DNA of 64,000 nucleotides from Phytophthora colocasiae (lineage: Eukaryota; Oomycota; Peronosporomycetes; Peronosporales; Peronosporaceae). Within the stretch, counting starts at the first letter, position 1. Each line of letters opens with the position of its first letter. Where the stretch lies: NCBI GenBank assembly GCA_018806915.1, contig JAGKQI010000104.1, positions 1,364,001 through 1,428,000 on the forward strand, written 5' to 3'. Positions 34,069 to 63,240 of this stretch are shown piece after piece. The notes under the pieces are model-generated. The model was not told where the DNA came from. It did not search any database and worked only from the letters and a program-made list of their open reading frames with translations. The position numbers were made by a program, and so were the translations under genes.

Positions 34069-34231
34069 GCAACAAGACACGCACTGAAGCTGAATTTCCC
34101 TTTATAAACTAATTATTCGATTTTATATAGTTTTGAAGGATACTAGTATATGGAGGTTATTACTCATGAACTTCAAGTTGTAATCTTAAAAAGATTCTCG
34201 TGTATATATTTTTTCAGCCTTCTGCTATGTT

Positions 34232-35534: not shown

Positions 35535-35913
35535 TATTAAGTTTTGGTGTGCGAAGTTCCGAGACGATCTGGAAATGAGTTCCCATCCAAGTTGCTGTCC
35601 TTCTGGCGAGAATAGCTGTAGAATCCATAGGCAACATTGCGGCATCAAGTATCGTTGAAAACGTTGCTTGTCTTCCTATTTTCAGGTTGTACGTCCTATC
35701 TAGATGATGAGATGCATGCACTTCATCACAACCCGTTTAGTCTTCAAAGCTCCATGTACTAAAGAAATACCGTTGGCTATTCTGATCCCAAAAAACGACA
35801 GGAACACGAATATTCTTTTTCTTGAAAAACATTATCCATCCGTTTCGTGATCTTCAGAGTGGCTCTTCAATTTGGATCTTGTCAAACAGTTGAGATATCT
35901 TCCTCAAGCCCTC

Positions 35914-38900: not shown

Positions 38901-39864
38901 CTCATGATGTATTTGAAGGTCCTCTCACGCCTTTACTAGCCGTGGATCGATTCGAAAGTGCCTATTACAAACAGTACCGTAATGTCCACTTTCGAGACTG
39001 GGATAATGCCACTGCGAGCAACAACGCAGCCCCAATGTACACGAAATACGTTGCAGAGCTTGAACCTGCTCATTCTCCAGTGAGTTTTCGGTTTGAGATT
39101 GTTCCTGGAATGGATCGAGCCAAGTTTTCCTATTTGGTGATCAAGACTCTGACCCCATTCGCCAATACTGCGAAGTCGATGGATCGAGTGTATCCGACAG
39201 AGAATAAAACGAAAGGAATTCGCATTGCTCAAACAATTGCAGTGGAGAAAATCCGTCAAGATGGCCAAACTTCGTCAACTTCCGCTACGCCTTGTGCTGA
39301 GGGAGTTTTCTCCAATGGACAGTCACGTTCGTGTTGGTGTGTGGAAGGTCAAGTGGTATTCAAGGATGAACCTGATTGTGTGTACGAGTACCGTTCGTCA
39401 GGCACCTTCTCTAGGCTCTGGGCAGGTGAAGCAGTTGGCGCTTTAGAGTTGAAAGTCACTGGACAAGGACTGAATGCGGAGAAAATTCGAGATCTTCTTC
39501 TCAATTGTTACGCCCATGCCGAGTCTTCACCTAACCAAATTCGCTCCAAGGCTTCCATCAGTCTGGATGAGAAACGTGAAATCCAACGACAACACGTACG
39601 TTATCATTATTCCAATGGCCTCATTTGGTGGTTCCTCACTGAGTTTTTTTTGTTTTGCAGGCTATGGATCCCCTACCAGAAGGATATCTGTTCGATGGAA
39701 CTAACTACGTGGATTTCTTCGGTGGACGCTACGAATTCCATCCTTGCATCGCTCAATTCATTGACGAGTACATCACAACAGCGAATGACGTCAGGAAGGA
39801 GACGAACTTGAAAGCCTCAAAGGAGCAAGAGTCCCAACGATCTTTCGTCACGCAGCTTGTGTAG
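35914..39864 (+). CDS. DNAAF9: DNAAF9 (C20orf194)-like dynein assembly factor, four exons
   Basis: Exons up to 37285, 37339-37907, 37973-39595 and 39661-39864 join in frame through three short introns (53, 65 and 65 bp). The first ATG in frame is 35914, giving about 1255 residues; 14 more codons are open upstream but start only with TTG, so an additional 5' exon is possible. Recognition rests on conserved blocks: LDGILLVGGVDS near the start, EKWPLVQSYGVEG and GKGFFTMNHRV, and the C-terminal LPEGYLFDGTNYVDFFGG and YEFHPCIAQFIDEYI. A nucleotide-binding-like VTVMLGIPGSGVQAMSQSV lies in the third exon. In animals the protein aids assembly of axonemal dynein arms; oomycete zoospores have motile flagella, so the same role fits. 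Confidence 0.87.
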
Positions 39865-43085: not shown

Positions 43086-44803
43086 TTAACTGGTATGATC
43101 TCTCCGTAACCATGAAAAGCTGAATGTGTAGTCAAAACCTAACGCAACAGGCTCCGAAAGCTTAGTGACAATACTAACATCCAGCAAAGTCTAGCACAAA
43201 ACTTACCGCAATGTTGAAGAGAGGACTGCACGTTATAGAAGACCCAGAAGACCAGTCGATTTTGAACTCGAGTATACTGTTTCTCCAGAACAAATGCTAG
43301 CTGTTGGAAGGCGGAAAATCGCATCTTGTGCCACAGTATGGCGTTTAGGATCACTAAAGAGAAAAGTTGGAGTCCAGCGTACAGGAACAGGTTGAAGAGT
43401 GTCCTGCGAAGTCGATCATCGTCCATATGACTCATTTGTTCGTAGTAGGCTCGATTGGGTAAATGAAACATCGTAAACAAGTACGCCGCTGTGCATCAGC
43501 AAGAAATCGTGAGTAAAATGCCTCTGAATCTGAATGCCCAGCCTTACAGAAAATGACCGGGATGATGACCTCGACGTAGTTTAGTAACACCACAAATTCT
43601 GTAATATACAGTACCCGTCGAAGCTCTTCGACGTACTGAAGATCCAGATTCCCACTCATTGCGTTATTCAGATCGATTATTCTCGGTCCAGCACGGGTGG
43701 GGAGTTCATGCAGGATAAAAATCTCCTTCTGTTTGGTGTTTATCTAACTTCGTGATCGGATGAATTATAGGGGACATTTTGAGAAATGCTTTCGGGAGCG
43801 GAGAAATAACCCCTGCTGACGACAAGCTGGAACTCATATGTCGTTTGAAAATGTCCTGCGCAATATGAAATTCCGTTTTCGTGCGGTCTTGCTTCCCTTT
43901 CCCCACTTGAACAATTTTCCTCCGAAGTGTTTTTAAGCGTCGAACAACTACTTCCACATCGTAAAGTGATGCACACATCTGCAATGCATCTGCGGCCATC
44001 AGCACGAATGTTGTCTCCAGTGATGGAGTGTTTTGCATACAATAAGCCACAAACAAGGCGCTGAAGACCTCAACGTTCAATATGACAATTTCTGGAATTT
44101 CATCGGTTAAATGGACAACGGTTTGAGCCATCACGTTGCGTAAAATGAGCTTGATAACAGGCAGAATAGCTGCAAATGACGTTTTCCAATTGTTAGGGAC
44201 CCTTGTGAAGAAGAAAAAGTACGTTGGATACAGAAGAACGAGAACTTCTTGGATCGCCATTACTTTGAGTGAATTAATAACAAGGGGCCAAATTGCAGGA
44301 TCCTTACGAGCTTTTTTCATCCACGAAAACAGGGGGAGAACGACAAGAGGCAGCCAAACTGGGGAGACAGTTAAACTACTAAACGGGACTGGGAAGCCTA
44401 TGTGTAATGCCAACAAATACAATGCACTGACTGTTAGGGCAGCAATGATTCCACTGATTCCAATAATTTGGATGGTATTGAGAGGCATTGCCGCTACAAT
44501 GTGTTTGAATTGGATGTAGGTCATAATGGTGGCGATCCAGAACGAGACCTGGGCTCGCATAAAGAAGACAAAGTTCGCGTAAATTCCTTCGGATGTCGGA
44601 CGTAGTGGCATCACATCGACAACGGTGATAAGCAGTAAACTGGGCAGTGGTGTTACCAGTGTAATGACGAAAACACGTAAGCTGCTCGTAGTATTGCTGT
44701 AAGTAAATAAATTCTGCGCACGCTGCGCAGAATACGAGCCTCGGAGTTCCACTTGGGCCGCTTTCCAGAAACCAGCAAGGTTTGTTCGCAAGAAGACAGC
44801 CAT
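43086..44803 (-). pseudogene. Multi-pass membrane family, copy 1 (divergent), frame broken
   Basis: The copy starts at ATG 44803 (MAVFLRTNLAGFWKAAQVEL). The long first exon encodes about eight membrane segments, with landmarks LRPTSEGIYANFVFFM, YIQFKHIVAAMP, LLYPTYFFFFTRVPNNWK and LNVEVFSALFVAYCMQNTPS. The frame ends at TGA 43706; the conserved next block (LQYVEELRRVLYITEFVVLL) is in another frame, so one shift lies near 43710. Exon 2 (43488-43207: AYLFTMFHLPNRAYYEQ ... FWVFYNVQSSLQHCG) and a tiny last exon (43138-43086: FDYTFSFSWLR) follow with conserved intron phases. It is clearly diverged from copies 2-8. No named family is recognised; ten membrane segments suggest a transporter or sensor-like membrane protein. 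Confidence 0.72.
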
Positions 44804-45052
44804 GCTGATAATAAAAAAGGGGTTCTTTAACGCTATTCTTGTTTTACAAAATCCTATATTGAAGTCTTAAGGCACATAATGATTTACTGCTGTGAGCTAG
44901 ATATTTTTTACCCCGTGTGCGTTCGAAGCCATGCAAAAGTGAACTCAAAATCGAACCCTGGAGACACATACATGAACGAATTAGCAAAATTTCTGTACGT
45001 TACGTTTGGATGAACTTGCCGAACGCACCGAAATGTTGTAGTGCGGTCTGAA

Positions 45053-45258
45053 TGTTGGATTGTGCATCGAGACCTGGCGCAGTTTGAAGAAAGATTGAGC
45101 AGCAGGGAACCAGGTCGCTGTATGAGAGAGGGCAAAGGCCCATGAGTGTTGGTCAGTGCTCTGGTAGGAGCAACTAACACCAAGTAATTCAGTCTTCATA
45201 TTTCTCCCTATTCATCAGGAGCTCGTCGGAGCTATTGCAGCTTGTCGGAATCACAACA
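45053..45258 (+). repeat. Copia-2 left LTR
   Basis: 206 bp, TGTTGGATTGTGCATCG ... GGAATCACAACA, identical to the right LTR by eye. Confidence 0.95.
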
Positions 45259-45274
45259 GGGTTATGAGCCCAAG
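45259..45274 (+). other. Copia-2 primer-binding site overlapping the gag start
   Basis: GGGTTATGAGCCCAAG is a long match to the complement of the initiator-tRNA anticodon arm. The gag-pol ATG (45264-45266) is the triplet that would pair with the CAU anticodon of the primer. Confidence 0.8.
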
Positions 45275-48200
45275 TGGTGGTGGTAACACAGGCATGAGTA
45301 AGCCGATGAAGTACACGAACGAGGGAGTGCCGAAGAACTGGCAGGGTAAGGATTGGCCAACGTACAAATGGGCAATGACTAATGTTTTCAAGGAGAACGA
45401 CCTGAAGACGATTGCTGATGGAACCTTAACTAAGGCAATGCTATCCACGGCAAGCGCAGAGGATCAGGAGAAGTTCGAGAAAAAGCAAATTAAGATCATG
45501 CGCATGATTGGGACGTCTGTGCCGCCCGAAGTTCTTCAGCAGATACGCGACAAGGAGACCGGATCGGAGATGTGGGCAGAGCTTTGCAACCTTTTTGAAG
45601 GGAAGCAGAATGAAGCGATCAAGGCCTACACGATTCGTCGCTTGGAGAATGAGCTCTGGGACAAGAAGCTCGCTCCTGGAGGAGATGCAAATCTCCATCT
45701 TTGCAAGATGTTCAGCATTAAATCAGAATTGGTAGGCTTGCAGCACACTATTGAAGACAGTACGATGGTGGACATGCTGTTGGAAAGTTTGCCGGAGTTG
45801 ACTGAGTTTGAATGCCTGAAATCTTCCATTCGCTATGGTGCGGACCCAAGTGTGTATACACCGGTGCGAGTTCGTGAGTTAATTCTTGCAGCTGCTGCTC
45901 GTCAGAAAGAATTCAGAACTAAGCGCCAGGGAAAGCAAGGGGGCCATAAAGGCGGAGGTGGCAAAGGAAATGACCCGGATAAAGGTGGAAATGGCAGTCA
46001 GCAGAACAAGTCCAATGAACAGCGGAAGACCCGACTGTGCTTTGTCTGCGGTAGTGACAGTCACATTAAAGCCAATTGTCCGGAGAGTCAAGAGAAGAAA
46101 AGCGGTGCTGGGGATGGTGAATCCAAGCGGAAACCGCAAGGGAACTTGACGCTCAGTCAAGTGGACAGTGTACCGTCACAGATACTGCAGGTAGATGCAG
46201 ATCAAGGGATAGTGGCGGGATTGATGACTGCTGAGGAACATTTGGAGCACGAAATAATGTACGAGGTGAGTGATCATGGGGCAGGAGTTGATGAAAGGCT
46301 TCTGGAGATCAGTGATCAAGAGCCAGCCGAGAACAACTTTAGCGGTTGGTGGTATTTTGACACTGCATCGAATTCTCACGTGGTCGGAGATCGCTCGTAT
46401 TTCGTGAGCTTCACTGAGGACACGTCACAACTTCGTAGTATTCGAGGGATTACACCGACAATTGCAGCACGTATTGCTGGTGTCGGGACTGTTGAAATGA
46501 CCACTGAAGTAAATGGCGAACAGAAGGTGATGTATCTGGAGGATGTTTTTTACATTCCGGGAGCTGAATTTGGACTCTTTTCACCCGGATTGGCACATGA
46601 ACAAGGGTTTGATTTCACGTTTGATCATGACACTCAGGACTTCGCTATACTTTGGGAAGGAAGAGCCGTGGCTCTAGCGAAGCCACAAGAAGCAACTTGG
46701 GGTTTCTTAGGAGTGCATCCAGGACAGTCAAGAGTGGAGCGGCCGGTTGATCGTCGTCCACTGGCAAATGTTACAGTAGCCGATGGAGTTGGTACTTTGG
46801 CATTATGGCACGAGCGCATGTGTCATATTTGCCCTCAATATCTGAAAACTATGGTGGATAAGGGGCTAGTGAAGGGCATGATGCTGACCCAGCGTCACCG
46901 GGATATCTGCGATGCTTGTCACTTAGGAAAGCAGAAGAAGAAAGGTTACCGCAAGAAACTTGACAGAGCAACAAAATGGCCGAATCAAGTGGTGTATGCG
47001 GACCTGTTAATCCCCAGTAAGGACAATCGGACTCGGTATGAAGCCGTACTAGTTGTAATGGACGGATATTCTAGATTCGTGAAAGTGTACTTGTTGACGA
47101 GCAAGGAGAGTCCCATTGTGAACAAGCACTTGCAGGAGTACATACTTTGGGCTGAGCGCCAAGCCGGACGGGATGGTGACGGTGCTGATTACAAAGTGAA
47201 GCAAGTACTGACGGACAAAGGTGGTGAATTCATTAACAGAGGGATGGAAAACTGGTACGCAAGGAGAGGAATTGAGCACATCCGTGTGGGTCCAAAGAGT
47301 TCACAGTTGAACTTGTGTGAACGAACTCATCAATCTTTGGTGGATATGATGAAAACCACGATGTTGCATGCAGGATTGCCTCGGAGCTTGTGGCCAGAAG
47401 CCCTACGGAATGCGGTATACGTGAAGAATCGAGTATACAATCGCGGGACTCAAGGAGTACCGTATGAGATGATGTTCGGGATGAAACCTGACGTGCATCA
47501 CATTCGAAAGTTTGGATCGTTGGCGTATGTACACGTGCCAGTGACATCGGGAAGACGCAAACATGACAACAATGCGAAGATTGGTTTTGTGCTAGGATAT
47601 GAGGAGGATGTTGTAGGCTGTAAAGTTTACTTCCCAGAGGAGCACACCGCCAAGTTCGTGTCGGACCTACGTGTGGCTGAAGATGTAGTGTACAAAGACC
47701 GTCATGATAATGCTGTAGACGAAGATGATCTGGAGTCGTTGCACTTCACACGGCGTGAAGATCAGGACGTCGAACAGGAAACCATCTCGGAGCTGGAGAT
47801 GGCTACATCCTGGACACAGTCCATGTTTAGCGAGCAAAACACCGAACGGTCTGTTGAGCTCGTGGGAGGCGAAATGGATGTAGTGGCTGACAGAGAGCTC
47901 GAGAAGGGCGTCAAGCATGTAGACACGATCTCGCAGAACTGGAGACTCGGCAGGACGACGTTGGAAGCACAAGAGAACTTAGTAGAGAGGTTCTTGAACC
48001 CGAAATCGAGAGTGATGGTCACGGTGATGAAGCTTCACGTGGTGAGTCAGTTGTTGTTCGCAGTCTTAGTGCTTGCGTTCCGGAAAGTGATGTGGCAAGT
48101 GGTTCTGGAGATCAGAGAGCTGATGACAGTTCAGGAGATCAGAATGAAGACGTTGAATCTGTGGCGGGAACGCGTGGTTCATCGGTAGCAGACAACGTGG

Positions 48201-50219
48201 AGGAGGATGAGGAAGAAGGATCGCTGGTTGATGACAACATTACTGTGGCAAGTGGGTTTTCGTTTGATGAGAAGATAATCTCAGTGGAAAATGACAACAT
48301 GTCAAGTGCGATTGGACTTGAAGAGGACTTGGAAACAAGCAATTGGTTGGAGGATGAATTGAATGAGCATTACCATGTAGTTGTGGAGAAGGATAACGCA
48401 CAAACCGTGGATGCTAGTGCTCAAATTACCCTAACTGCTGCCCGAGAAACTGGAAAACGTGCACACCGCGATGAAACTCAGTCAGAGGAGGATCGTGTTG
48501 AGCATGAGGCAGATAAACCAGAGGTGAAGAGGACTCGAACTGGACTTCGAGAGACGCATGAAAGACGTCGGCCTCAACGGTTTGATGACTTTGTTATGTG
48601 TGCTACGTCCTCACGGATCCTGGACGGAAACGGAAAGCCTATTCGCGCATGTGAGGTGAAAATCCCCAGGAACAGACGTGAAGCACTACGGTCAAAGTGG
48701 GCAAACTATTGGCTGGAAGCAGAAACAGAAGAGATCGCTGCACTGAAAGCGAAGGGAGTTATCCAAGAGATTCCAAATGAGGAAATTCCTGAAGATGCTA
48801 AACCGGTGAGCACGATGTGGGTCTATGCATTGAAGTCGGATCACCAAGGATACGTGATCAGATTCAAGGCTCGAATTGTGGCGTTGGGGAATCACCAACG
48901 ACCAGGCATTGACTTCAAGGAGACCTTCGCGCCTGTAGCCAGAATGGCATCGTTCCGACTGTTGTTGGGATTGGCTGCACTACTGGAGTTAGAGGTTTAT
49001 GGTGGAGACGTGAACACTGCCTACCTCAACGCCTGGCTAGGGATACGTCAGTATCTACACTCCATCAGTGGATATCCGTGCAGAGTGAATGGACATTCCT
49101 ACGTTGTACTCAAGGCTCTATATGGACTAAGACAATCGGGTCGAGAATGGAACTCGGAACTAAATGATTGGTTCATCCAGCGTGGATACCAGAGGTCGTT
49201 GACGGAGCCGTGTCTGTACTACCTGTTCGAGGATGACACGATTGTATACGTGTTAGTATACGTCGATGACATTTTAGTGGCAACAAACAGCAAGCAGTTC
49301 AAGGATCAGTTGTTCATGGACTTGGACAACACGTACGGTCTTAAGGATCAAGGGCTGTTGACACAGTACTTGGGTGTGGAAGTGACACACACTCCGGAGT
49401 ACATCATGATCAACCAAGGCAAGTATGCAAGAGATTCTGGGAAAGTTGGGTTTTGAGAATGCTCACGCAGTGGGGAATCCAATGGAAGTAAACTCCCGGC
49501 TTATACCTCTTGGAGAGAAGGAGTGTGCTGACAGCAGCTTTCCGTACCGTGAGGCTGTTGGCATGCTCATGTATCTGGCTACTAGTACCAGGCCGGACCT
49601 GGCTTTCGTCTTGGGCCAGCTGAGTCGCTTCGTGGCGAATCCTTCGTCGAAGCATATTGGGACTCTAAAGAGAGTGTTGCGCTACTTGGCAGGGACTCTA
49701 GACTATGGTATTAAGTACGAGAAGAAGAACAACTCAAAGGAGTTGGTGTTGCAGGGCTACTGCGACAGTGATTGGGCTAACGACCCAGATCAAAGGAAGA
49801 GCACCACTGGATTCGTGTTTACGCTTGCTAGTGGAGCTGTAGCGTGGATGTCACGACGGCAATCTGTCATTGCTTTGTCGACCGCAGAGGCGGAGTACAT
49901 TGCAGCGTGCGAGGCCACGATGGAGGCGGTTGCTGGGAAAAATGTTTTACAGGAGCTTTTACCGCAGCATAAGGTGAAACTGCGTGTGGGAATTGACAAT
50001 CAAGCGGCTCACGTGATGGCAACTAATCCTACCTACAGCAGACGCACTCGCCACATTGAATTGCGGTGGCATTACGTTCGGGAACAAGTGCAAAAGGGCA
50101 CTGTGGAGTTGCACAAGGTGAAGGGTGAAACGAACCCGGCTGACACGTTCACCAAGCCTCTTGACAAGAAGCGACTGAAAATGTTGTTGCAAATTGCAGG
50201 GATTGGAGAAGCAGAGTAG
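45264..50219 (+). pseudogene. Copia-2 gag-pol with two frame breaks
   Basis: The first frame (45264-48188) holds gag, a CCHC knuckle (CFVCGSDSHIKANC), protease (WYFDTASNSHVV, the usual DSGA written DTAS), pre-integrase (WHERMCHICPQYLKTM ... CDACHLGK) and integrase with acidic residues in VVYADLLIPS, VLTDKGGEF and LNLCERTHQSL. Past about 48050 the meaningful reading moves to the frame ending at 49456, which holds an acidic linker and RT (YGGDVNTAYLNA, LYGLRQSGREWN, and catalytic YVDDILVAT). It then returns to the first frame for RNase H (CDSDWANDPDQRKS, LSTAEAEYIAA, DNQAAHVMA) to TAG at 50219. Two single-base changes thus separate it from a complete polyprotein; with identical LTRs these may be sequence errors. 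Confidence 0.9.
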
Positions 50220-50265
50220 TCGAAGACCCGTGTTCGACCTCGAAAACCGATCTTCGAGAAGGGCG

Positions 50266-50471
50266 TGTTGGATTGTGCATCGAGACCTGGCGCAGTTTGA
50301 AGAAAGATTGAGCAGCAGGGAACCAGGTCGCTGTATGAGAGAGGGCAAAGGCCCATGAGTGTTGGTCAGTGCTCTGGTAGGAGCAACTAACACCAAGTAA
50401 TTCAGTCTTCATATTTCTCCCTATTCATCAGGAGCTCGTCGGAGCTATTGCAGCTTGTCGGAATCACAACA
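50266..50471 (+). repeat. Copia-2 right LTR
   Basis: 206 bp, identical to the left LTR by eye, preceded by the purine tract GAGAAGGGCG and followed by target duplication CTGAA. Confidence 0.95.
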
Positions 50472-52201
50472 CTGAACATTGTAAAAGACCCACAGGATCA
50501 ATTTGTTCTGAACAGGACTACACTGCCTCTCCAACACAAACGACAGCTGACGGAAACCCGAGAGACGCATCTTATGCCACAACACCAAGTTCAGGATCAA
50601 CAGTGATACAAGTTGCAGGCCAGCGTACACCAGCACGTTCGAGAGTGTCTCGTAAAGTTGTGTTTTATCCATGCCATCGATCTGCTTGTAGTACGCTCGA
50701 TTAGGTAGATGATACATCATCAGCAAGTACGCCGCTACAGTAGTAAAACAAAACCACACACACACAAAGTTATTCGTCGTAACTTTCACTTGAGTACAGT
50801 CATTGTAGATGAGCGGGTGTACGTACAGAATATGAGGGGGATTATCACTTCCACATAGTTGAGCAAGACGACAAACTCGGTAATGTACAGTACTCGTTTG
50901 AGCTCGTGGACATACTGAAACTCCAACTTCGTGTCCCTTGCACAAGAAAGATCACTTTCCTGTGGTCCATTTCTAGGTTGTCTAACAGGTTTATCCTCTG
51001 CTGGGGGAGCAACCGGCTCAAATGGATGGACAGAAGAAATCTTTCGAGAACTGGTACCGCGCCAATTCTCGTACGATATCTGTACCGACCCGCTTCGTGA
51101 GAATATTTCTTGCGCAAGTTTGAGTTCCGAATTACTACGACCAGCGTGTGTATCTGTCGATTTTTCCCGATTAGTTCTTTTTCTCAAAGCTTCCATGTGT
51201 CCAATAATGACTCCAATATCGTACAATGATGCACTAATTTGCAGAGCGTCTATAGCCATGAGTGCGGCCATCGTAGTAAAAGACGGTGTGTTTTGCATGC
51301 AATACGCCACGAAAAGTGCACTTACTACCTCCACATTAAGAATCACGCCTTCAGGGACTTCATCACTGAGATATCCAACAGTCTTTGCCAGTGCGTTACG
51401 AAAAAGAAGCTTGAGGATTGGCAAAAGCAGCGCAAAATATGTTTTCCCACGATCTGGGACTGTCGTAAAAACATAAAAATACGTCGGGTACACAACCACC
51501 ATAACTTCTTGGCAAACCATCACTTTTACCGAAGTTGTCACTAGTGGCCACATTGCAGGATCTGCACGAGATTTAATCATCCACGGAACCATAGGCATCA
51601 TAAAAAGCGACAGCCACAGGGGCGACATCGTAATAATACTGAAAGGCAATGGGAAGCCCACGACTAAAGTGAGTCCATACATGACGCCCACTGTGATTGT
51701 AGCCACGATAGCTCCAAAACTTGCAATCCTCATATTCGATAGTGGCAATTGAGGTACGATGTGTTTAAATTGATTGTACGTAGTCGTATTGGCCAGCCAA
51801 AAGGCCAAGAATGCTCGAATGAAAAATAACTTGTTAGAATTGACATCAGATCCCACAGGACGTAAGGGGAGTAAGTCGACTATTGCTGTTATCCCGAGAC
51901 ACGGCAGTGGCGTGATTAACTGAGCTAGAAGAACTCGGAGGCTGCTCGCTTGGCTGTTGTATGTGAAAAGATCTTGCACGCGCTTGGTTGAGTATTCGCC
52001 TTGAAGCTCAACTTGAGATGCCTTCCAAAGAGAAACCAGCTTTCGTTTCACAAACGAAAACATGGCGTGCAAAGTGCAGGATGTTCCAGAAGAAAGGTAT
52101 GTTTAGAATACTTTAGAACTCTTCAACCAAGATAAAATTGTTTACCCATATAAGCTTGTACTCTACAAAAATGTGATAGTATCCTAGTCATATATACCTT
52201 G

Positions 52202-53927
52202 TCATTTTGAACAGGCTCGAAGCCATGCAAAAGTGAACTCAAAATCGAACCCTGGAGACACATACATGAACGAATTAGCAAATTTCTGGTACGTTACGTT
52301 TGGATGAACTCTGCCAAACGTACCGAAATGTTAGCGCGGTCTGCACATTGTAAAAGACCCACAGGATCAATTTGTTTCTGAACAGGACTACACTGCCTCT
52401 CAACACAAACGACAGCTGACGGGAAACCCGAGAGACGCATCTTATGCCACAACACCAAGTTCAGGATCAACAGTGATACAAGTTGCAGGCCAGCGTACAC
52501 CAGCACGTTCGAGAGTGTCTCGTAAAGTTGTGTTTTATCCATGCCATCGATCTGCTTGTAGTACGCTCGATTAGGTAGATGATACATCATCAGCAAGTAC
52601 GCCGCTACAGTAGTAAAACAAAACCACACACACACAAAGTTATTCGTCGTAACTTTCAGCTTGAGTACAGTCATTGTAGATGAGCGGGTGTACGTACAGA
52701 ATATGAGGGGATTATCACTTCCACCTAGTTGAGCAAGACGACAAACTCGGTAATGTACAGTACTCGTTTGAGCTCGTGGACATACTGAAACTCCAACTTC
52801 GTGTCCCTTGCACAAGAAAGATCACTTTCCTGTGGTCCATTTCTAGGTTGTCTAACAGGTTTATCCTCTGCTGGGGGAGCAACCGGCTCAAATGGATGGA
52901 CAGAAGAAATCTTTCGAGAACTGGTACCGCGCCAATTCTCGTACGATATCTGTACCGACCCGCTTCGTGAGAATATTTCTTGCGCAAGTTTGAGTTCCGA
53001 ATTACTACGACCAGCGTGTGTATCTGTCGATTTTCCCGATTAGTTCTCTTTCTCAAAGCTTCCATGTGTCCAATAATGACTCCAATATCGTACAATGATG
53101 CACTAATTTGCAGAGCGTCTATAGCCATGAGTGCGGCCATCGTAGTAAAAGACGGTGTGTTTTGCATGCAATACGCCACGAAAAAGTGCATACCTCCACA
53201 TTAAGAATCACGCCTTCAGGGACTTCATCACTGAGATATCAACAGTCTTTGCCAGTGCGTTACGAAAAAGAAGCTTGAGGATTGGCAAAAGCAGCGCAAA
53301 ATATGTTTTCCCACGATCTGGGACTGTCGTAAAAACATAAAAAATACGTCAGGTACACAACCACCATAACTTCTTGGCAAACCATCACTTTTACCGAAGT
53401 TGTCACTGGTGGCCACATTGCAGGATCTGCACGAGATTTAATCATCCACGGAACCATAGGCATCATAAAAGCGACAGCCACAGGGGCGACATCGTAATAA
53501 TACTGAAAGGCAATGGGAAGCCCACGACTAAAGTGAGTCCATACATGACGCCCACTGTGATTTATAGCCACGATAGCTCCAAACTTGCAATCCTCATATT
53601 CGATAGTGGCAATTGAGGTACGATGTGTTTAAATTGATTGTACGTAGTCGTATTGGCCAGCCAAAAGGCCAAGAATGCTCGAATGAAAAATAACTTGTTA
53701 GAATTGACATCAGATCCCACAGGACGTAAGGGGAGTAAGTCGACTATTGCTGTTATCCCGAGACACGGCAGTGGCGTGATTAACTGAGCTAGAATAACTC
53801 GGAGGCTGCTCGCTTGGCTGTTGTATGTGAAAAGATCTTGCACGCGCTTGGTTGAGTATTCGCCTTGAAGCTCAACTTGAGATGCCTTCCAAAGAGAAAC
53901 CAGCTTTCGTTTCACAAACGAAAACAT
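52202..53927 (-). pseudogene. Membrane family copy 3, frameshifted
   Basis: The copy starts at ATG 53927 and is nearly identical to copy 2 in sequence, introns and 3' exon (GFDFEFTFAWLRACSK to TGA 52202). The reading is broken at several places by one-base or few-base indels: loss of one A in the run near 53465, an extra A near 53340, loss of a C near 53240, a short deletion near 53190, and changes near 52705, 52385 and 52330. Most lie in homopolymers or doublets. Either it is a very young pseudogene or the assembly has indel errors; reads must decide. Confidence 0.8.
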
Positions 53928-54055
53928 GGCGTGCAAAGTGCAGGATGTTCCAGAAGAAAGGTATGTTTAGAATACTTTAGAACTCTTCAACCAAGATACC
54001 CATATAAGCTTGTACTCTACAAAAATGTGATAGTATCCTAGTCATATATACCTTG

Positions 54056-55784
54056 TCATTTTGAACAGGCTCGAAGCCATGCAAAAGTGAACTCAAAATC
54101 GAACCCTGGAGACACATACATGAACGAATTAGCAAAATTTCTGTACGTTACGTTTGGATGAACTTGCCGAACGCACCGAAATGTTGTAGTGCGGTCTGAA
54201 CATTGTAAAAGACCCACAGGATCAATTTGTTCTGAACAGGACTACACTGCCTCTCCAACACAAACGACAGCTGACGGAAACCCGAGAGACGCATCTTATG
54301 CCACAACACCAAGTTCAGGATCAACAGTGATACAAGTTGCAGGCCAGCGTACACCAGCACGTTCGAGAGTGTCTCGTAAAGTTGTGTTTTATCCATGCCA
54401 TCGATCTGCTTGTAGTACGCTCGATTAGGTAGATGATACATCATCAGCAAGTACGCCGCTACAGTAGTAAAACAAAACCACACACACACAAAGTTATTCG
54501 TCGTAACTTTCACTTGAGTACAGTCATTGTAGATGAGCGGGTGTACGTACAGAATATGAGGGGGATTATCACTTCCACATAGTTGAGCAAGACGACAAAC
54601 TCGGTAATGTACAGTACTCGTTTGAGCTCGTGGACATACTGAAACTCCAACTTCGTGTCCCTTGCACAAGAAAGATCACTTTCCTGTGGTCCATTTCTAG
54701 GTTGTCTAACAGGTTTATCCTCTGCTGGGGGAGCAACCGGCTCAAATGGATGGACAGAAGAAATCTTTCGAGAACTGGTACCGCGCCAATTCTCGTACGA
54801 TATCTGTACCGACCCGCTTCGTGAGAATATTTCTTGCGCAAGTTTGAGTTCCGAATTACTACGACCAGCGTGTGTATCTGTCGATTTTTCCCGATTAGTT
54901 CTTTTTCTCAAAGCTTCCATGTGTCCAATAATGACTCCAATATCGTACAATGATGCACTAATTTGCAGAGCGTCTATAGCCATGAGTGCAGCCATCGTAG
55001 TAAAGACGGTGTGTTTTGCATGCAATACGCCACGAAAGTGCACTTACTACCTCCACATTAAGAATCACGCCTTCAGGGACTTCATCACTGAGATATCCAA
55101 CAGTCTTTGCCAGTGCGTTACGAAAAATAAGCTTGAGGATTGGCAAAAGCAGCGCAAAATATGTTTTGCCACGATCTGGGACTGTCGTAAAAACATAAAA
55201 ATACGTCGGGTACACAACCACCATAACTTCTTGGCAAACCATCACTTTTACCGAAGTTGTCACTAGTGGCCACATTGCAGGATCTGCACGAGATTTAATC
55301 ATCCACGGAACCATAGGCATCATAAAGCGACAGCCACAGGGGCGACATCGTAATAATACTGAAAGGCAATGGGGAAGCCCACGACTAAAGTGAGTCCATA
55401 CATGACGCCCACTGTGATTGTAGCCACGATAGCTCCAAAACTTGCAATCCTCATATTCGATAGTGGCAATTGAGGTACGATGTGTTTAAATTGATTGTAC
55501 GTAGTCGTATTGGCCAGCCAAAAGGCCAAGAATGCTCGAATGAAAAATAACTTGTTAGAATTGACATCAGATCCCACAGGACGTAAGGGGAGTAAGTCGA
55601 CTATTGCTGTTATCCCGAGACACGGCAGTGGCGTGATTAACTGAGCTTAGAAGAACTCGGAGGCTGCTGCTTGGCTGTTGTATGTGAAAAGATCTTGCAC
55701 GCGCTTGGTTGAGTATTCGCCTTGAAGCTCAACTTGAGATGCCTTCCAAAGAGAAACCAGCTTTCGTTTCACAAACGAAAACAT
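54056..55784 (-). pseudogene. Membrane family copy 4, frameshifted
   Basis: The copy starts at ATG 55784, again almost identical to copy 2. Frame breaks lie near 55645-55670 (an extra T and a lost base), 55370 (extra G), 55325 (two A lost from the same run that is altered in copy 3) and 55010-55035. Exon 2 and the tiny last exon (to 54056) are intact. It preserves the empty Copia target (GCGGTCTGAACATTGT at about 54191). No private stop codon other than those caused by the shifts was seen. Confidence 0.8.
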
Positions 55785-55922
55785 GGCGTGCAAAGTGCAG
55801 GATGTTCCAGAAGAAAGGTATGTTTAGAATACTTTAGAACTCTTCAACCAAGATAAAATTGTTTACCCATATAAGCTTGTACTCTACAAAAATGTGATAG
55901 TATCCTAGTCATATATACCTTG

Positions 55923-57683
55923 TCATTTTGAACAGGCTCGAAGCCATGCAAAAGTGAACTCAAAATCGAACCCTGGAGACACATACATGAACGAATTAGC
56001 AAAATTTCTGTACGTTACGTTTGGATGAACTTGCCAAACGTACCGAAATGTTGTAGCGCGGTCTGCACATTGTAAAAGACCCACAGGATCAATTTGTTCT
56101 GAACAGGACTACACTGCCTCTCCAACACAAACGACAGCTGACGGAAACCCGAGAGACGCATCTTATGCCACAACACCAAGTTCAGGATCAACAGTGATAC
56201 AAGTTGCAGGCCAGCGTACACCAGCACGTTCGAGAGTGTCTCGTAAAGTTGTGTTTTATCCATGCCATCGATCTGCTTGTAGTACGCTCGATTAGGTAGA
56301 TGATACATCATCAGCAAGTACGCCGCTACAGTAGTAAAACAAAACCACACACACACAAAGTTATTCGTCGTAACTTTCACTTGAGTACAGTCATTGTAGA
56401 TGAGCGGGTGTACGTACAGAATATGAGGGGGATTATCACTTCCACATAGTTGAGTAAGACGACAAACTCGGTAATGTACAGTACTCGTTTGAGCTCGTGG
56501 ACATACTGAAACTCCAACTTCATGTCACTTGCTTTAGAAATGTTAGTCTCCTGGGATCGGCTTCGATCCTTATGTTGTTGCATTGGAACAATTGAAGACT
56601 GCTGTTTTGTGCGTCTCTGACTTTCAACCAAAGTAAATGGGTGAACTGCTAATGAAAGCCCCGCATAGAATTCTGCAACAAAGTAGGCTTCATTGGAATT
56701 TCCATTCGAGAATTGCCACATCGTGAGAGTATCTGTTGGGCGTCATTGACATCCAGAGCCTTACGTCGGCTTTGATTCGCTTTCCATCTCCCCATTTTCC
56801 TTACCAAAGCATCCATACGTCCGGTAGTGATCCAAATATCGTGCAATGATGCACTCGTCTGCAGCGCGTCTATAGTCATGAGTGCGATCATTGTATTGAC
56901 GGATGGGGTGTTTTGCATACAATACGCTACAAACAGCGCACTAATGACCTCCACGTTAAGGATCACGCCTTCAGGAACTTCATCACTGAGGTACCCTACA
57001 GTTTTTGCCATTATTATTCGGAAAATAAGCTTGAGGAGTGGCAAAAGGAGTGCAAGATATGCCTTTCCGCTGTCTGGTATTATCGTAGAAATGTAGAAGT
57101 ACGTCGGGTAAACAATCACCATAACTTCTTGACAGACCAGCACCTTGAGTGAAGTGACCACAAGTGGCCACAAGATAGGATCCGAGAAGGTTTTGATCAT
57201 CCATGGAACCATTGGCATTACGAAAAGCGGCACGCACAGAGGTGACATGGTGATAATACTGAAAGGCAATGGGAAACCTATTGTCAAAGTGAGTCCATAC
57301 ATTGCGCCAACTGTGATCGCAGCCACAATAACTCCATAGCTTGCAACTCTCGTGTTCGATAGTGGTAATTGAGGTACGATATGTTTAAATTGGTTGTAAG
57401 TGGTCGTGATTGCCAGCCAAAACATAAAGAATGCCCGGACAAAGAAAAAATGGTTGGAGGCCACCCCATCTTCCACTGGACGTAAAGGGAGCAAATCGAC
57501 GATCGCGGTTATCCCGAGACACGGCAGCGGTGTGAGTAGTTGAGCTAGGAGAACTCGGAGGTTGCTCACTTCGTTGATGTATGTGAAAAGATCCTGTACT
57601 CACTTGGTAGAATATTCGCCGTGAAGCTCAACTTGAGTTGCCTTCCAAACAGAAGCAAGTTTTCGTTTCACGAACGCAGTCAT
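55923..57683 (-). pseudogene. Membrane family copy 5, nonsense codon, mosaic
   Basis: The copy starts at ATG 57683 (MTAFVKRKLASVWKATQVEL). Codon 28 (about 57600) is TGA where copies 2-4 have an Arg codon (STK-R-VQDLF). After that the frame is open for about 300 codons (SNLRVLLAQLLTPLPCLG ... ILNVEVISALFVAYC), then shifts near 56650-56720. From about 56521 to 55923 the sequence is almost identical to copies 2-4, while the rest is clearly diverged. The copy is therefore a mosaic and an outer member of the array. Downstream reinitiation at an internal ATG would give a protein without its N-terminus. Confidence 0.78.
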
Positions 57684-57775
57684 CACGTCTCGAAATATTT
57701 AATGAAGACTTTTTTCAGTCGGGTATTTCGAGAAACGACATGATATTCTTTACACGGAGCAACTTTACAGTTGGT

Positions 57776-58645
57776 TCATAGCGTTTTGCCCTGGCGGAAT
57801 GTACGGAAGAGTTTATCCCAGAGTGAAAATCTCTTTGCGAAATTCCAGCGTGGGTGAGTGTGGTGGAGATCATGGTCATGTACACGTAGACAAATACTTG
57901 TGACGTTGTTCAGTAGTGGCATTTGTGGGAACGAAAAGCCTTTAATATCCAATCCAGAGTGGCCAGCGACTTCCACGTACGTCTTGTAGGCAAAAAGCAG
58001 GTGCAGCTGGAGATCCGAGAACGGAAAGCCACAACTAAAGGCCAAACAGAATGGTAGCACATTCGTCAGACACAAGTCGAAACCGTCTTGCTCGTAAGTT
58101 GATAAAGGGCACGGGTGGAGATGCAGATGATGACGCTTGTGCACGTTCCTGTACAGCCACGAACTGTAGTGACACACCCAGTGCATCGCGAAGTGGAACA
58201 AGTCGAAGATAACCTCGAACATCAGCGACTTAGGGATAAACACCGCGTATTCCATAGCGAAAGAGTACCATGTGATATTGCTCTGCAAAGGTACAGTGTT
58301 CTGCTCTGCAAACCAGTAGGAAACGCATTCTGTCGGTACCACAAGCCACAAAATACGAAGATAAATGGCTCTGACTTGTGCGTCCGTGAGCTGAATGCGC
58401 GTATCGCCATTGATCTGCGCTTTCTTGGTTGCAATCCACTCAAACCACTTGATCATCACCAGAATACGCAGCAAACTGATGCTGTAAACCGTCAAGAGAT
58501 GCACGAACGTCTCGCCATCGCGACTCACAGACGCTACCGCCTTGTGGCTGCCCATAGCGACGCTGCAGATGAACGCGTTGATGAAGAGGTAGTACTTACA
58601 GCGCCTAGCAACAAGCTGCAGCGAGGGGAACTCGATGGACTTCAT
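57776..58645 (-). CDS. Sterol desaturase / fatty acid hydroxylase family enzyme
   Basis: This intact, intronless 289-residue membrane enzyme starts at ATG 58645. Three histidine clusters of the di-iron family are present: FDLFHFAMHWVCH, NVHKRHHLHLHP and, near the C-terminus, RVHDHDLHHTHPRWNF. Four or five hydrophobic segments precede or separate them. Family members hydroxylate or desaturate sterols, sphingolipid bases or fatty acids using oxygen and an electron carrier in the ER. Phytophthora species do not complete de novo sterol synthesis, so action on host-derived sterols or on sphingolipid/alkane-type lipids is worth considering. It lies exactly between the two divergent membrane-gene arrays, 218 bp from copy 6. 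Confidence 0.9.
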   Translation of the reverse strand: MKSIEFPSLQLVARRCKYYLFINAFICSVAMGSHKAVASVSRDGETFVHLLTVYSISLLRILVMIKWFEWIATKKAQINGDTRIQLTDAQVRAIYLRILWLVVPTECVSYWFAEQNTVPLQSNITWYSFAMEYAVFIPKSLMFEVIFDLFHFAMHWVCHYSSWLYRNVHKRHHLHLHPCPLSTYEQDGFDLCLTNVLPFCLAFSCGFPFSDLQLHLLFAYKTYVEVAGHSGLDIKGFSFPQMPLLNNVTSICLRVHDHDLHHTHPRWNFAKRFSLWDKLFRTFRQGKTL

Positions 58646-58863
58646 CTGCTGCTCGACGATTGCGCACTGGTAGGAATGACAGGTTCACAATCTTCGACGT
58701 GGATAGGGAGATGGATACGCCACGCACCTGCGTCATGAAACTGAACTTTACCGATATAGATTATGTCATAGTGACGTACTTCAACGTCGGACAGATATAG
58801 GTACCGAATACACAAGAATAGTCCGTGCACAACAGTATCAGTTCGCATCTAGTACTGTGCAGC

Positions 58864-60613
58864 ATGAATGCGTTCATGGTGCCGGTCGCTAAGTTGGTGA
58901 GGCTTTATAGGGCCACGCAGGTGGAGCTTCAAGGGGAGTACTCGACACAGCGTGTTCAGGCTCTGTTTAACTACCACGACTGCGTCACCACCCTTCGTGT
59001 GTTGCTCGTTCTGGTTGGGATGCCCGTACCGTGCTTCCTGCTCATCACGATTGTGGACTCAGTGCCGCTACGACCCATAGTGAAGGGATCCACAGCAGTC
59101 TCCTCTTCTTCATACGAGCGCTCGTGTGTTTCTGGATTGCTAGTATCGCGGCATACTGGCAGTTCAAGCACACGGTTCCTCCTGCGCCTCTGACCAATGT
59201 TAAGATTGTCGTTTATGGAGCCATCATAGCTGTTATTACTATCGCTGTCATGTACTCACTCACACTGGCAATCGGCTACCCACTTCCTTTCGGTATCGTC
59301 ACCGTCTCTCCAGTATGGGCATGCTTATTGCTGGCACCTTTTGTTTCGTGGATGAACAGTGCTCGGAAAGACCCGATAGTGTGGTCGATGTTAATGAACC
59401 TGCTGAAAATCATGGTCTGTCAGGAATCGCTGATCTTCATTTATCCAACGTATTTCTACCTTTTCACGACAATCCCTGACAGCGGAAAGACAGCATTTTC
59501 TCTCCTGCTGCCGGTAATGAAGCTGATTTATTGTACGTGGTGCCATGGCGAAGACGGTGGTTCATCTAAAGGACGATATTCCTCTCGTGGTTGTAGTGAA
59601 CGTTGACCTATTTAGCGCTTTGTTTTCGACGTACTGCATGCAGGGCTCACCTTCTGTCAAGACAACGTGCGTTCTCATGGCTGCAGATGTCCTTCAAATC
59701 TGTATGTCACTGTATGACATCGAGCTGGTAGTTTAACGTATGCGAGTTTTAAAGAAAAAACGTGGAGTTATACAGGCTGTGAAGGTCCAGGGGAAACTTC
59801 AAAGCTCAACGTCAGAACCGAACGTCCTGCACAGTACCAAGAGGAGGGAAAGCGACGCTCGAGCTTCAGCGTCAAGTTTGTTCGCAATGCTCCAGGAATC
59901 GAAGCATAGGTTATCGCAAACGATCCAAACCAACGGGGTTTTTCAGAAACCAAAAATTCGAAGAAAACCTGGTTTGTTGCGGAAAATCGCGCCAACGTTG
60001 GCAGAATTTGAAGACAACATGGAGACAAACAAAGACTCCCCGAGGACGATAATCGAACACCAGTACGTACGGGAGCTGCAAAAGGTGTTGTACATCACAG
60101 AGTTTGTCGTTCTGGTCAACTACGTGGAAGTTATCATCCCGGTTATTTTTTGTAAGTTGTTTCTGCGATAAACTTTTGAGGATCCCAATTTTCACGAAAC
60201 CGGTATGCTTTATGATACACAGCGGCGTATTTATTCACGATGTATCACCTACCCAACCGAGTGTACTACGAGCAAATGGCCGACATGGACGAAAAGCGGC
60301 TTTACGCGGCTCTTTTTAACGTCCTCCTCTATGCTGGTCTGCAATTAGCGTCGCTTGTGGCGATAAACGTTGTACTCTGGCACAGATTGCAGCATTTCTG
60401 TCAATTGGCGTTTGCTCTCGATAAGCAGTGGGCCAAAGTTCAAGGCTGGTTTATTATGTGGGTAGTCTATAACGTGCAGGCTTCCTTGCAACATTTCGGT
60501 AAGTAGTGTACAGTAGAGTATTTTTGACGAAGTGCTAACCATGTATTAACTTCGTGACGCTAGGGTCAGACTACACCTTTAAATTTAAGTGGCTGCAAAA
60601 ACCTTCTGGCTAA
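58864..60613 (+). pseudogene. Membrane family copy 6, first of the plus array
   Basis: The copy starts at ATG 58864 (MNAFMVPVAKLVRLYRATQ). It follows the family plan: VDSVPLRPIV, then after a shift near 59080 SLLFFIRALVCFWIAS and YWQFKHTVPPAPLTN, IYPTYFYLFTTIPDSGK, then after a second shift near 59535 MAKTVVHLKDDIPLVVVVNV. An in-frame TAA (59734-59736) interrupts ELVV-RMRVLKKK. Exon 1 ends at 60151; exon 2 is 60223-60498 (AYLFTMYHLPNRVYYEQ); the last exon is 60564-60613 (SDYTFKFKWLQKPSG). Exon 2 has a 6-bp in-frame deletion relative to copy 7. The two shifts are shared with copy 7, and the first also with copy 8. Confidence 0.78.
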
Positions 60614-60737
60614 CCAGGATCAAGGCTACGAGAAGATAGCATTATATAACGATGATTTATTGTCATCGTTTAGTTGAAGCTAACATATAGATAACTGGAC
60701 ATGAAGATATACTGAAAACATAAGTTCTCGCGTGTCC

Positions 60738-62466
60738 ATGAATGCGTTCATGGTGCCGGTCGCTAAGGTGGTGAGGCTTTATAGGGCCACGCAGGTGGAG
60801 CTTCAAGGAGTACTCGACACAGCGTGTTCAGGCTCTGTTTAACTACCACGACTGCGTCACCACCCTTCGTGTGTTGCTCGTTCTGGTTGGGATGCCCGTA
60901 CCGTGCTTCCTGCTCATCACGATTGTGGACTCAGTGCCGCTACGACCCATAGTGAAGGGATCCACAGCAGTCTCCTCTTCTTCATACGAGCGCTCGTGTG
61001 TTTCTGGATTGCTAGTATCGCGGCATACTGGCAGTTCAAGCACACGGTTCCTCCTGCGCCTCTGACCAATGTTAAGATTGTCGTTTATGGAGCCATCATA
61101 GCTGTTATTACTATCGCTGTCATGTACTCACTCACACTGGCAATCGGCTACCCACTTCCTTTCGGTATCGTCACCGTCTCTCCAGTATGGGCATGCTTAT
61201 TGCTGGCACCTTTTGTTTCGTGGATGAACAGTGCTCGGAAAGACCCGATAGTGTGGTCGATGTTAATGAACCTGCTGAAAATCATGGTCTGTCAGGAATC
61301 GCTGATCTTCATTTATCCAACGTATTTCTACCTTTTCACGACAATCCCTGACAGCGGAAAGACAGCATTTTCTCTCCTGCTGCCGGTAATGAAGCTGATT
61401 TATTGTACGTGGTGCCATGGCGAAGACGGTGGTTCATCTAAAGGACGATATTCCTCTCGTGGTTGTAGTGAACGTTGACCTATTTAGCGCTTTGTTTTCG
61501 ACGTACTGCATGCAGGGCTCACCTTCTGTCAAGACAACGTGCGTTCTCATGGCTGCAGATGTCCTTCAAATCTGTATGTCACTGTATGACATCGAGCTGG
61601 TAGTTCAATAAAGAAAAAACGTGGAGTTATACAGGCTGTGAAGGTCCAGGGGAAACTTCAAAGCTCAACGTCAGAACCGAACGTCCTGCACAGTACCAAG
61701 AGGAGGGAAAGCGACGCTCGAGCATCAGCGTCAAGTTTGTTCGCAATGCTCCAGGAATCGAAGCATAGGTTATCGCAAACGATCCAAACCAACGGGGTTT
61801 TTCAGAAACCAAAAACTCGAAGAAAACCTGGTTTGTTACGGAAAATCGCGCCAACGTTGGCAGAATTTGAAGACGATACGGCGACAAACAGAGACTCCCC
61901 GAGGACGATAATCGAACACCAGTACGTACGGGAGCTGCAAAAGGTGTTGTACATCACAGAGTTTATCGTTCTGGTCAACTACGTGGAAGTTATCATCCCG
62001 GTTATTTTTTGTAAGTTGTTTCTGCGATAAACTTTTGAGGATCCCAATTTTCACATGCTTTATGATACACAGCGGCGTATTTATTTACGATGTATCATCT
62101 ACCCAACCGAGTGTACTACGAGCAAATGGCCGATATGGACGAAAAGCGGCTTTACGCGGCTCTCTTTAACGTCCTCCTCTATGCTGGTCTGCAATTAGCG
62201 TCGCTTGTGGCGATAAACGTTGTACTCTGGCACAGATTGCAGATTTCTGTATTCCGTCAATTGGCGTTTGCTCTCGATAAGCAGTGGGCCAAAGTTCAAG
62301 GCTGGTTTATTATGTGGGTAGTCTATAACGTGCAGGCTTCCTTGCAACATTTCGGTAAGTAGTGTAGAGTATTTTGACGAAGTGCTAATTTACTGCTACT
62401 AACTTCGTGACGTTAGGGTCAGACTACACGTTTAAATTTAAGTGGCTGCAAAAACCTTCTGGCTAA
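60738..62466 (+). pseudogene. Membrane family copy 7
   Basis: The copy starts at ATG 60738 and is nearly identical to copy 6. A private 2-bp loss in a GGGG run near 60810 (CTTCAAGGAG for CTTCAAGGGGAG) breaks the frame at about codon 24. The two shifts shared with copy 6 recur (about 60954 and 61408), and a further deletion with TAA near 61610 replaces the junction after ELVVQ. Exon 1 ends at 62010; exon 2 is 62073-62354 and the last exon 62417-62466, all with conserved splice sites. Confidence 0.78.
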
Positions 62467-62590
62467 CCAGGATCAAGGCTACGAGAAGATAGCATTATAT
62501 AACGATGATTTATTGTCATCGTTTAGTTGAAGCTAACATATAGATAACTGGACATGAAGATATACTGAAAACATAAGTTCTCGCGTGTCC

Positions 62591-63240
62591 ATGAATGCGT
62601 TCATGGTGCCGGTCGCTAAGGTGGTGAGGCTTTATAGGGCCACGCAGGTGGAGCTTCAAGGGGAGTACTCGACACAGCGTGTTCAGGCTCTGTTTAACTA
62701 CCACGACTGCGTCACCACCCTTCGTGTGTTGCTCGTTCTGGTTGGGATGCCCGTACCGTGCTTCCTGCTCATCACGATTGTGGACTCAGTGCCGCTACGA
62801 CCCATAGTGAAGGGATCCACAGCAGTCTCCTCTTCTTCATACGAGCGCTCGTGTGTTTCTGGATTGCTAGTATCGCGGCATACTGGCAGTTCAAGCACAC
62901 GGTTCCTCCTGCGCCTCTGACCAATGTTAAGATTGTCGTTTATGGAGCCATCATAGCTGTTATTACTATCACTGTCATGTACTCACTCACACTGGCAATC
63001 GGCTACCCACTTCCTTTCGGTATCGTGACTGTCTCGCCCGCGTGGACCTGCCTGTTATTGACACCTTTTGTTTCGTGGATGAACAACGCTCGGAAAGATC
63101 CGATACTGCGGCCGATGTTGATTAATCTGCTGAAAATCATGGGCTGTCAACAATCGCTGGTTTTCATTTATCCAACATATTTCTACCTTTTCACAACGAT
63201 CCCTGACAGCGGAAAGACAGCATTTTCTACATGTCACAGG
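62591..63240 (+). pseudogene. Membrane family copy 8, 3'-truncated
   Basis: The copy starts at ATG 62591 and keeps the GGGG run lost in copy 7, but has the same shared shift near 62808. Similarity to copies 6 and 7 drops from about 63020 and ends abruptly after the SGKTAFS codons (about 63228). Unrelated sequence with a GTAAG donor-like word follows, so the copy lacks its last membrane segments and the two 3' exons. It is the right-hand end of the array. Confidence 0.75.

What the first reader, a model, noticed from the sequence alone, without database searches (positions are those of the whole stretch)
43086..63240. Two divergent tandem arrays of one unassigned membrane-protein family around a lipid-modifying enzyme
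Seen: eight copies of one four-exon-type gene, five on minus and three on plus, with spacing of about 1857-1899 bp between neighbouring starts in copies 2-8. The arrays point away from a sterol desaturase/fatty acid hydroxylase gene between them. The proteins have about ten membrane segments and share landmarks such as QFKHIVPQLPL, NVEVVSALFVAYC and a tiny last exon with FDFEFTFAWL or SDYTFKFKWL. I cannot place the family. Inference: a rapidly turning over surface or lipid-linked membrane family, perhaps functionally tied to the enzyme.
Basis: partly seen in the sequence, partly recalled or inferred. Interest (0 to 1): 0.8.

Follow-up and report, generated by a model that had tools for sequence, protein, structure and literature searches.

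The report
Decaying array of unnamed oomycete membrane genes
Eight neighbouring copies of one unnamed ten-helix membrane-protein gene, most or all of them broken, are a small outpost of a family of about a hundred genes in this Phytophthora-like genome; the lipid enzyme between them is probably just a neighbour.

Summary
The eight copies are real: five on minus, three on plus, around an FA_hydroxylase (PF04116) gene found once in the genome. (1) The genes have three exons. (2) Copy 2 is split by a young Ty1/copia element, copy 8 by about 10.5 kb of transposon-bearing DNA. (3) As assembled, 8 of 8 copies are disrupted, though many lesions in copies 3 and 4 may be assembly indels. (4) The arrays are a minor part of a family with about 110 merged matches on 26 contigs, many of them open. 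Copies are conversion mosaics with a history of purifying selection. No Pfam, NCBIfam or PDB match was significant, although two AlphaFold models are confident (pTM 0.86 each). Enzyme adjacency recurs in P. oleae and P. cactorum, but coupling is unsupported. Best reading: a birth-and-death array of an oomycete transport-type membrane family; a TMEM16/OSCA-like fold is a weak lead.

The parts
43089..44803 (-). copy 1 (c1): 3-exon family gene, one frame disruption in the loop between TM8 and TM9
   Evidence: (frame-aware alignment to P0001)
50472..52063 (-). copy 2 (c2): exon 1 and most of exon 2, no frame lesion up to codon 510 of the P0001 alignment; cut by the retroelement
44908..45052 (-). 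detached 3' end of copy 2 (end of exon 2, intron 2, last exon)
   Evidence: (D12); end read by eye
45053..50471 (+). Ty1/copia-type LTR retroelement; two identical 206-nt LTRs (45053-45258, 50266-50471), 5-bp target duplication; Retrotran_gag_2, rve (just under cut-off), RVT_2; reading frame in three pieces
52214..53927 (-). copy 3 (c3): ten frame disruptions and one stop in the assembly; 98.1% identical to c2
54068..55784 (-). copy 4 (c4): four frame disruptions and one stop in the assembly; 99.4% identical to c2
55935..57683 (-). copy 5 (c5): one in-frame stop in exon 1, one frame disruption in the loop; 3' third near-identical to c2-c4
57776..58684 (-). fatty acid hydroxylase / sterol desaturase superfamily gene (ORF from stop; first ATG about 58645), three His boxes intact by eye, one match in the genome
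58864..60598 (+). copy 6 (c6): two frame disruptions and one stop
60738..62451 (+). copy 7 (c7): four frame disruptions, two of them shared with c6
62591..63228 (+). copy 8 (c8): 5' part only, shares one frame disruption with c6 and c7; matches to the rest lie outside the window at contig C49:1437750-1438797 beyond transposon-bearing DNA

Best explanation
The locus is a birth-and-death tandem array belonging to a large oomycete family of ten-helix membrane proteins. Shown: near-identical units of about 1.85 kb; mosaic copies of the kind made by gene conversion or unequal crossing-over, in one case with a shared frame lesion inside the converted tract; copies 2 and 8 cut by mobile DNA; and, as assembled, no copy left whole. 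Shown by codon counts: purifying selection on the protein for much of the copies' history. Shown: many relatives elsewhere in the genome are open. Inferred: the protein is a transport-type membrane protein (ion channel, transporter or lipid scramblase) with both ends and a disordered TM8-TM9 loop in the cytosol, working through conserved acidic residues in TM7, TM8 and TM9. Inferred: the hydroxylase is a conserved neighbour and not a partner. Likelihood: about 0.9 for the genomic part, about 0.35 for transport-type function; the stated confidence is for the whole.
For: Array, units and identity. Lesions. Retroelement with identical LTRs and 5-bp duplication. Copy 8 break. Conversion: c2-c5 dS 0.80 over codons 1-290 but 0.024 over 385-516; c6-c8 one difference in the first 381 bp, which includes the shared lesion, then (after one at 59244) 13, 9 and 6 in the next three full 60-bp blocks. 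Selection: c2-c5 dN/dS 0.167, c6-c8 0.205. Family size: 108 and 89 matches, merged to about 110 loci on 26 contigs, 96 of them in 30 clusters (lower bounds, since not all candidates were scored). Open relatives: 12 of 19 tested loci without lesion, 2 of these covered only in part; 8 of 10 further fetched loci have family ORFs over 500 aa. Fold and topology: pLDDT 87.9 and 87.0, pTM 0.86 twice; K/R-rich loop 302-379 and charge pattern fitting N-in. Conserved charges K218, D234, E245, D272, E406, E415 in 91-100% of filled rows. Old paralogue lineages: c5 groups with P. capsici P0024 (100/99), c6 with P. oleae P0199 (98/96).
Against: Function rests on topology and conservation only; no substrate, location or structural relative is established. 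Lesions in c3 and c4 may be assembly errors: c2-c4 differ by 3 substitutions and 7 indel columns, c2-c3 by 11 and 15, many in short homopolymer runs, so a whole copy could exist in the living strain. Seven of 19 control loci also gave lesions, so disruption is not peculiar to this array. Locus-tag adjacency is indirect evidence of synteny. In P. sojae the enzyme (P0095) and three family members (P0025, P0032, P0204) lie on contigs of the same listed length, 13391543 bp, so linkage may be wider than two species, which leaves some room for coupling.
Confidence: 0.6

Rival explanations
1. Functional partnership: the array proteins transport or present a lipid that the hydroxylase modifies, and the two are kept side by side for that reason.
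For: Adjacency also in P. oleae (V7S43_001586 enzyme, 001587 and 001589 family) and P. cactorum (P0037, enzyme followed by a c2-type protein in one gene model); possible linkage in P. sojae (contigs of equal listed length).
Against: One enzyme match against about 100 merged family loci elsewhere. In Pythium oligandrum the enzyme (Poli38472_000754, contig 2697281 bp) and family members (002104/002105, contig 2021824 bp) are on different contigs. If locus tags follow position, the c6-type gene of P. oleae lies beyond the c2-type gene and not on the other side of the enzyme. Enzyme relatives occur in genera not named among family hits.
Confidence: 0.07
2. The family is a divergent member of the TMEM16/OSCA/TMC superfamily: a lipid scramblase or cation channel gated through acidic residues in TM7-TM9.
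Confidence: 0.15
3. The copies are largely functional and the disruptions are mostly long-read assembly errors in a near-identical repeat.
For: Indel excess over substitutions between c2, c3 and c4; identical LTRs but the retroelement frame in three pieces.
Against: c2 and c8 are cut by mobile DNA; c6 and c7 share two frame lesions, one of them also in c8; the P. oleae c6-type protein P0199 lacks a stretch at about the same place and ends out of frame by eye; c5 has a substitution-type stop.
Confidence: 0.2
4. EXS-domain (XPR1/PHO1-type phosphate exporter) family, as the UniProt name of P0001 suggests.
For: The source name of P0001 only.
Against: No EXS hit in 42 members at E<=1; the genome's EXS matches are at other places; HHalign probability 0.4-1.3% against one of them.
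Confidence: 0.02

Closest known systems
Unnamed oomycete proteins P0001 (P. oleae V7S43_001587), P0003 (P. cactorum), P0199 (P. oleae V7S43_001589)
   Same: c2-type (P0001, P0003) and c6-type (P0199) relatives, P0001 80% identical to c2 exon 1; the P. oleae ones beside the same enzyme by locus tag
   Different: P0001 is an unbroken 532-aa model; P0199 looks disrupted as well, by eye
Single-exon relatives in the same genome (L047, L049-L053; 568-641 aa)
   Same: Same motif order; profile match at probability 100% (five of them as a set and L047 alone)
   Different: One long ORF; 24-27% identity to P0001-type rows for L051; open frames
TMEM16/anoctamin and OSCA/TMEM63 families
   Same: Ten helices, predicted cytosolic ends, weak structural alignment
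   Different: No sequence-profile relation found; long disordered loop lies between TM8 and TM9
FA_hydroxylase superfamily (PF04116)
   Same: The central gene is a member
   Different: No relation to the array proteins seen
Ty1/copia LTR retroelements
   Same: LTRs, target duplication, copia-type gag_2 and RVT_2
   Different: Ordinary; reading frame in three pieces here

Membership tests
TMEM16/anoctamin (PF04547) | Pfam profile match | tested here: not met
   0 of 42 members at E<=1; the 20 own-genome matches do not overlap family loci by coordinates
TMEM16/anoctamin (PF04547) | Fold of the ten-helix TMEM16 domain | tested here: inconclusive
TMEM16/anoctamin (PF04547) | Ca2+-binding acidic cluster in TM6-TM8 (recalled) | not testable with these tools
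   Conserved acids in TM7-TM9, but no coordinates to measure clustering
OSCA/TMEM63 (PF02714) | Pfam profile match | tested here: not met
   0 of 42 members at E<=1; the 7 own-genome matches are elsewhere
OSCA/TMEM63 (PF02714) | OSCA fold | tested here: inconclusive
EXS / XPR1-PHO1 (PF03124) | EXS profile match | tested here: not met
   0 of 42 members at E<=1; own-genome matches elsewhere; HHalign probability at most 1.3%
FA_hydroxylase superfamily (PF04116), for the gene at 57776-58684 | Profile match above the curated cut-off | tested here: met
   61.4 bits, cut-off 31
FA_hydroxylase superfamily (PF04116), for the gene at 57776-58684 | Three histidine boxes (pattern recalled) | tested here: met
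   HFAMH, HKRHH, HDLHH read by eye in the translation
Ty1/copia retroelement, 45053-50471 | LTR pair, target duplication, copia-type gag and RVT_2 | tested here: met
Oomycete unnamed ten-helix family | Homology to P0001-type proteins over the length present | tested here: met

The most novel reading that the evidence does not exclude
An unnamed, apparently oomycete-specific superfamily of roughly a hundred genes in this genome encodes a highly diverged branch of the TMEM16/OSCA-type channel/scramblase architecture, or a fold not yet solved, expanded by tandem duplication and reshuffled by gene conversion, possibly used in spore-stage membrane signalling.
Probability: 0.15. Interest if true: 0.75.

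Novelty: new member of a known kind. Interest (0 to 1): 0.42.

Why it matters
Lineage-specific expansions of polytopic membrane proteins are candidates for sensing, transport or membrane remodelling peculiar to oomycetes. The named hits seen here are called hypothetical, uncharacterized or transmembrane proteins, apart from a few labels that I take for automatic or fused-model names, so a family of about a hundred loci in one genome has no usable annotation. The array also shows a disabling lesion shared between paralogues inside a converted tract.

Tried and rejected
EXS name of P0001: rejected. Profile against sequences of solved structures: best E 2.5, rejected. Foldseek against PDB and viral models: nothing at E<=0.001. 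Insect gustatory/odorant receptor resemblance (Foldseek ranks 19, 22, 25, 27 and 44, TM-scores 0.11-0.21): not pursued; one paper search gave nothing on it among the 10 listed of 659. Weak Pfam hits in the family: CNNM E 0.8; DUF7520 E 0.0093 and AGTRAP E 0.012, each in 1 of 42 members, and Phage_hub_GP28 in 5 of 42, best 0.024; DUF4220 E 0.27: taken as chance. Four search hits carry precomputed Pfam domains (P0037 PF04116, P0182 PF00067, P0195 PF07714, P0198 PF19346); I take these for fused gene models, tested only by eye for P0037. Reading the shared c6-c8 lesion as ancestral pseudogenisation: rejected, because c6-c8 dN/dS is 0.205 and the lesion lies in a near-identical tract. Programmed frameshift at that place: not tested. 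Paper searches for the family: one search found no paper; the other five listed none that I recognised as describing it; I read listings only, and not every paper found was listed (20 of 22, 10 of 110 and 10 of 44). PITG_15600: a paper reports more than 10-fold induction in mating, and induction in asexual spores too, but calls it a Nipped-B ortholog (PMC5999078, passages only); the protein under that name here (P0079) is a family relative (25% identity over 70% of the query, E 6.7e-18) with no Pfam hit. The conflict is unresolved, so I do not use it as evidence. Ids of five family members (four P. sojae, one P. capsici) and of the P. sojae hydroxylase were in no paper held. The first control script used the wrong orientation for minus-strand loci and was replaced.
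Full report
WHAT IS THERE. The window lies in a 92.5-Mb, 105-contig assembly whose closest named protein matches are Phytophthora; the species was not identified. Eight copies of one gene family lie at 43089-63228. A frame-aware protein-to-DNA alignment to the unbroken P. oleae relative P0001 gave the same gene structure in the six copies long enough to show both introns (c1, c3-c7), and intron 1 in c2: exon 1 (about 422 codons), a phase-1 intron of 59-93 bp, exon 2 (about 94 codons), a phase-1 intron of 62-72 bp, and a last exon of about 15 codons carrying FDFEFTFAWL, SDYTFKFKWL or FDYTFSFSWL.

An element with two identical 206-nt LTRs (45053-45258, 50266-50471), flanked by a 5-bp duplication, with copia-type gag, a just sub-threshold integrase and reverse-transcriptase domains, sits in exon 2 of copy 2; the 3' end of copy 2 lies beyond it at 45052-44908. 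The same LTR gives 29 matches in the genome, 9 of them at 100% and the top score, including the two of this element. Copy 8 ends at 63228; the DNA beyond holds a DDE_3 transposase ORF (L036) and gypsy-like ORFs (judged by eye); matches to the rest of the gene resume about 10.5 kb on, with one piece inverted.

STATE OF THE COPIES. As assembled, 8 of 8 copies are disrupted: c1 one frame disruption in the variable loop; c2 by the element only; c3 ten frame disruptions and a stop; c4 four frame disruptions and a stop; c5 one of each; c6 two frame disruptions and a stop; c7 four frame disruptions; c8 one frame disruption and truncation. Against this, c2, c3 and c4 are 97-99% identical and differ more by indels than by substitutions (7 columns against 3 for c2-c4, 15 against 11 for c2-c3), which would fit unpolished long-read errors. 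One lesion of c6-c8 is shared by all three and another by c6 and c7, so these are unlikely to be independent errors. As a control, 19 other family loci of this genome were treated likewise: 12 of 19 had no lesion (two of these only partly covered), 7 of 19 had one or more. Eight of 10 further loci fetched carry family ORFs over 500 aa; in the other two my fetched piece did not show the gene whole, although searches list an open frame there.

HOW IT EVOLVED. Over codons 1-290, c2 and c5 differ at dS 0.80, dN 0.134 (ratio 0.167); over codons 385-516 the same pair has dS 0.024. c6 and c8 have one difference in 381 bp, a stretch that holds the shared lesion, then one at 59244 and 13, 9 and 6 in the next three full 60-bp blocks. 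Both are marks of gene conversion or unequal crossing-over. c6-c8 dN/dS of 0.205 over 210 codons points to selection on the protein since the two diverged. A tree of 18 sequences places c5 with P. capsici P0024 (100/99), c6 with P. oleae P0199 (98/96), and these two with two P. sojae sequences (100/100), so the c5 and c6 types are older than those species splits (c1 is a long branch and its place is unsure).

THE FAMILY. In the own genome copy 2 gives 108 matches and a distant single-exon member 89 (103 of 142 and 76 of 203 candidates scored, so lower bounds). Merged they make about 110 loci on 26 contigs, 91 of them spanning more than 600 bp, 96 lying in 30 clusters (broken copies can be split or merged by this count). 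Pfam gives no hit above cut-off for the array proteins or for eight distant members and none better than E 0.0093 among 42 members; NCBIfam nothing above cut-off for five; the profile against PDB sequences nothing better than E 2.5.

THE ENZYME. The PF04116 gene gives one match in the genome, with relatives in downy mildews, Pythium, Saprolegnia and Aphanomyces. In P. oleae the enzyme is V7S43_001586, next by tag to family genes 001587 and 001589. In P. cactorum P0037 is one gene model running from the enzyme into a c2-type protein, the order seen here for enzyme and copy 5. In P. sojae enzyme and three family members lie on contigs of the same listed length; in Pythium oligandrum they do not. 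So the neighbourhood is older than these Phytophthora species, but a conserved neighbour beside one of about thirty clusters is weak ground for joint function.

VERDICT. The array itself is an ordinary birth-and-death cluster in decay. The unnamed, structurally unmatched family behind it is the part worth following.

Noticed in passing
G000 contigs C9, C22, C56 and others; loci L046-L053: Many single-exon members (568-641 aa, one of 931 aa with a long N-terminal extension) of the same superfamily; none of the eight scanned has a Pfam hit above cut-off.
   Followed up: partly
window 35872-39808 (+): DAAF9 (axonemal dynein assembly factor 9) gene: DAAF9_N E 2.7e-42 and other DAAF9 domains in neighbouring ORFs.
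   Followed up: no
window 33451-35648 (-): Two neighbouring EamA-like transporter ORFs, a possible tandem pair.
   Followed up: no
G000 contigs C101, C22, C99, C43, C100, C9, C32, C57, C54, C84, C46, C96: Twenty matches to the Anoctamin profile on 12 contigs, some of them pieces of one gene.
   Followed up: no
P0079 (P. infestans PITG_15600): A paper calls this gene a Nipped-B ortholog induced in mating and asexual spores (PMC5999078, passages), but the protein under this name is a membrane-family relative without Pfam hits: either mislabelled or a changed gene model.
   Followed up: partly
P0199 (P. oleae V7S43_001589): The public gene model of the c6-type gene skips the region where c6-c8 carry their shared lesion and ends out of frame (by eye), hinting at a disruption there in P. 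oleae too.
   Followed up: no
window 11703-13271 (+), 23587-25653 (+), 25746-28207 (-): By eye from translations: a cytochrome P450, a copper amine oxidase and a family-A DNA polymerase gene in two ORFs; not run against a library.
   Followed up: no
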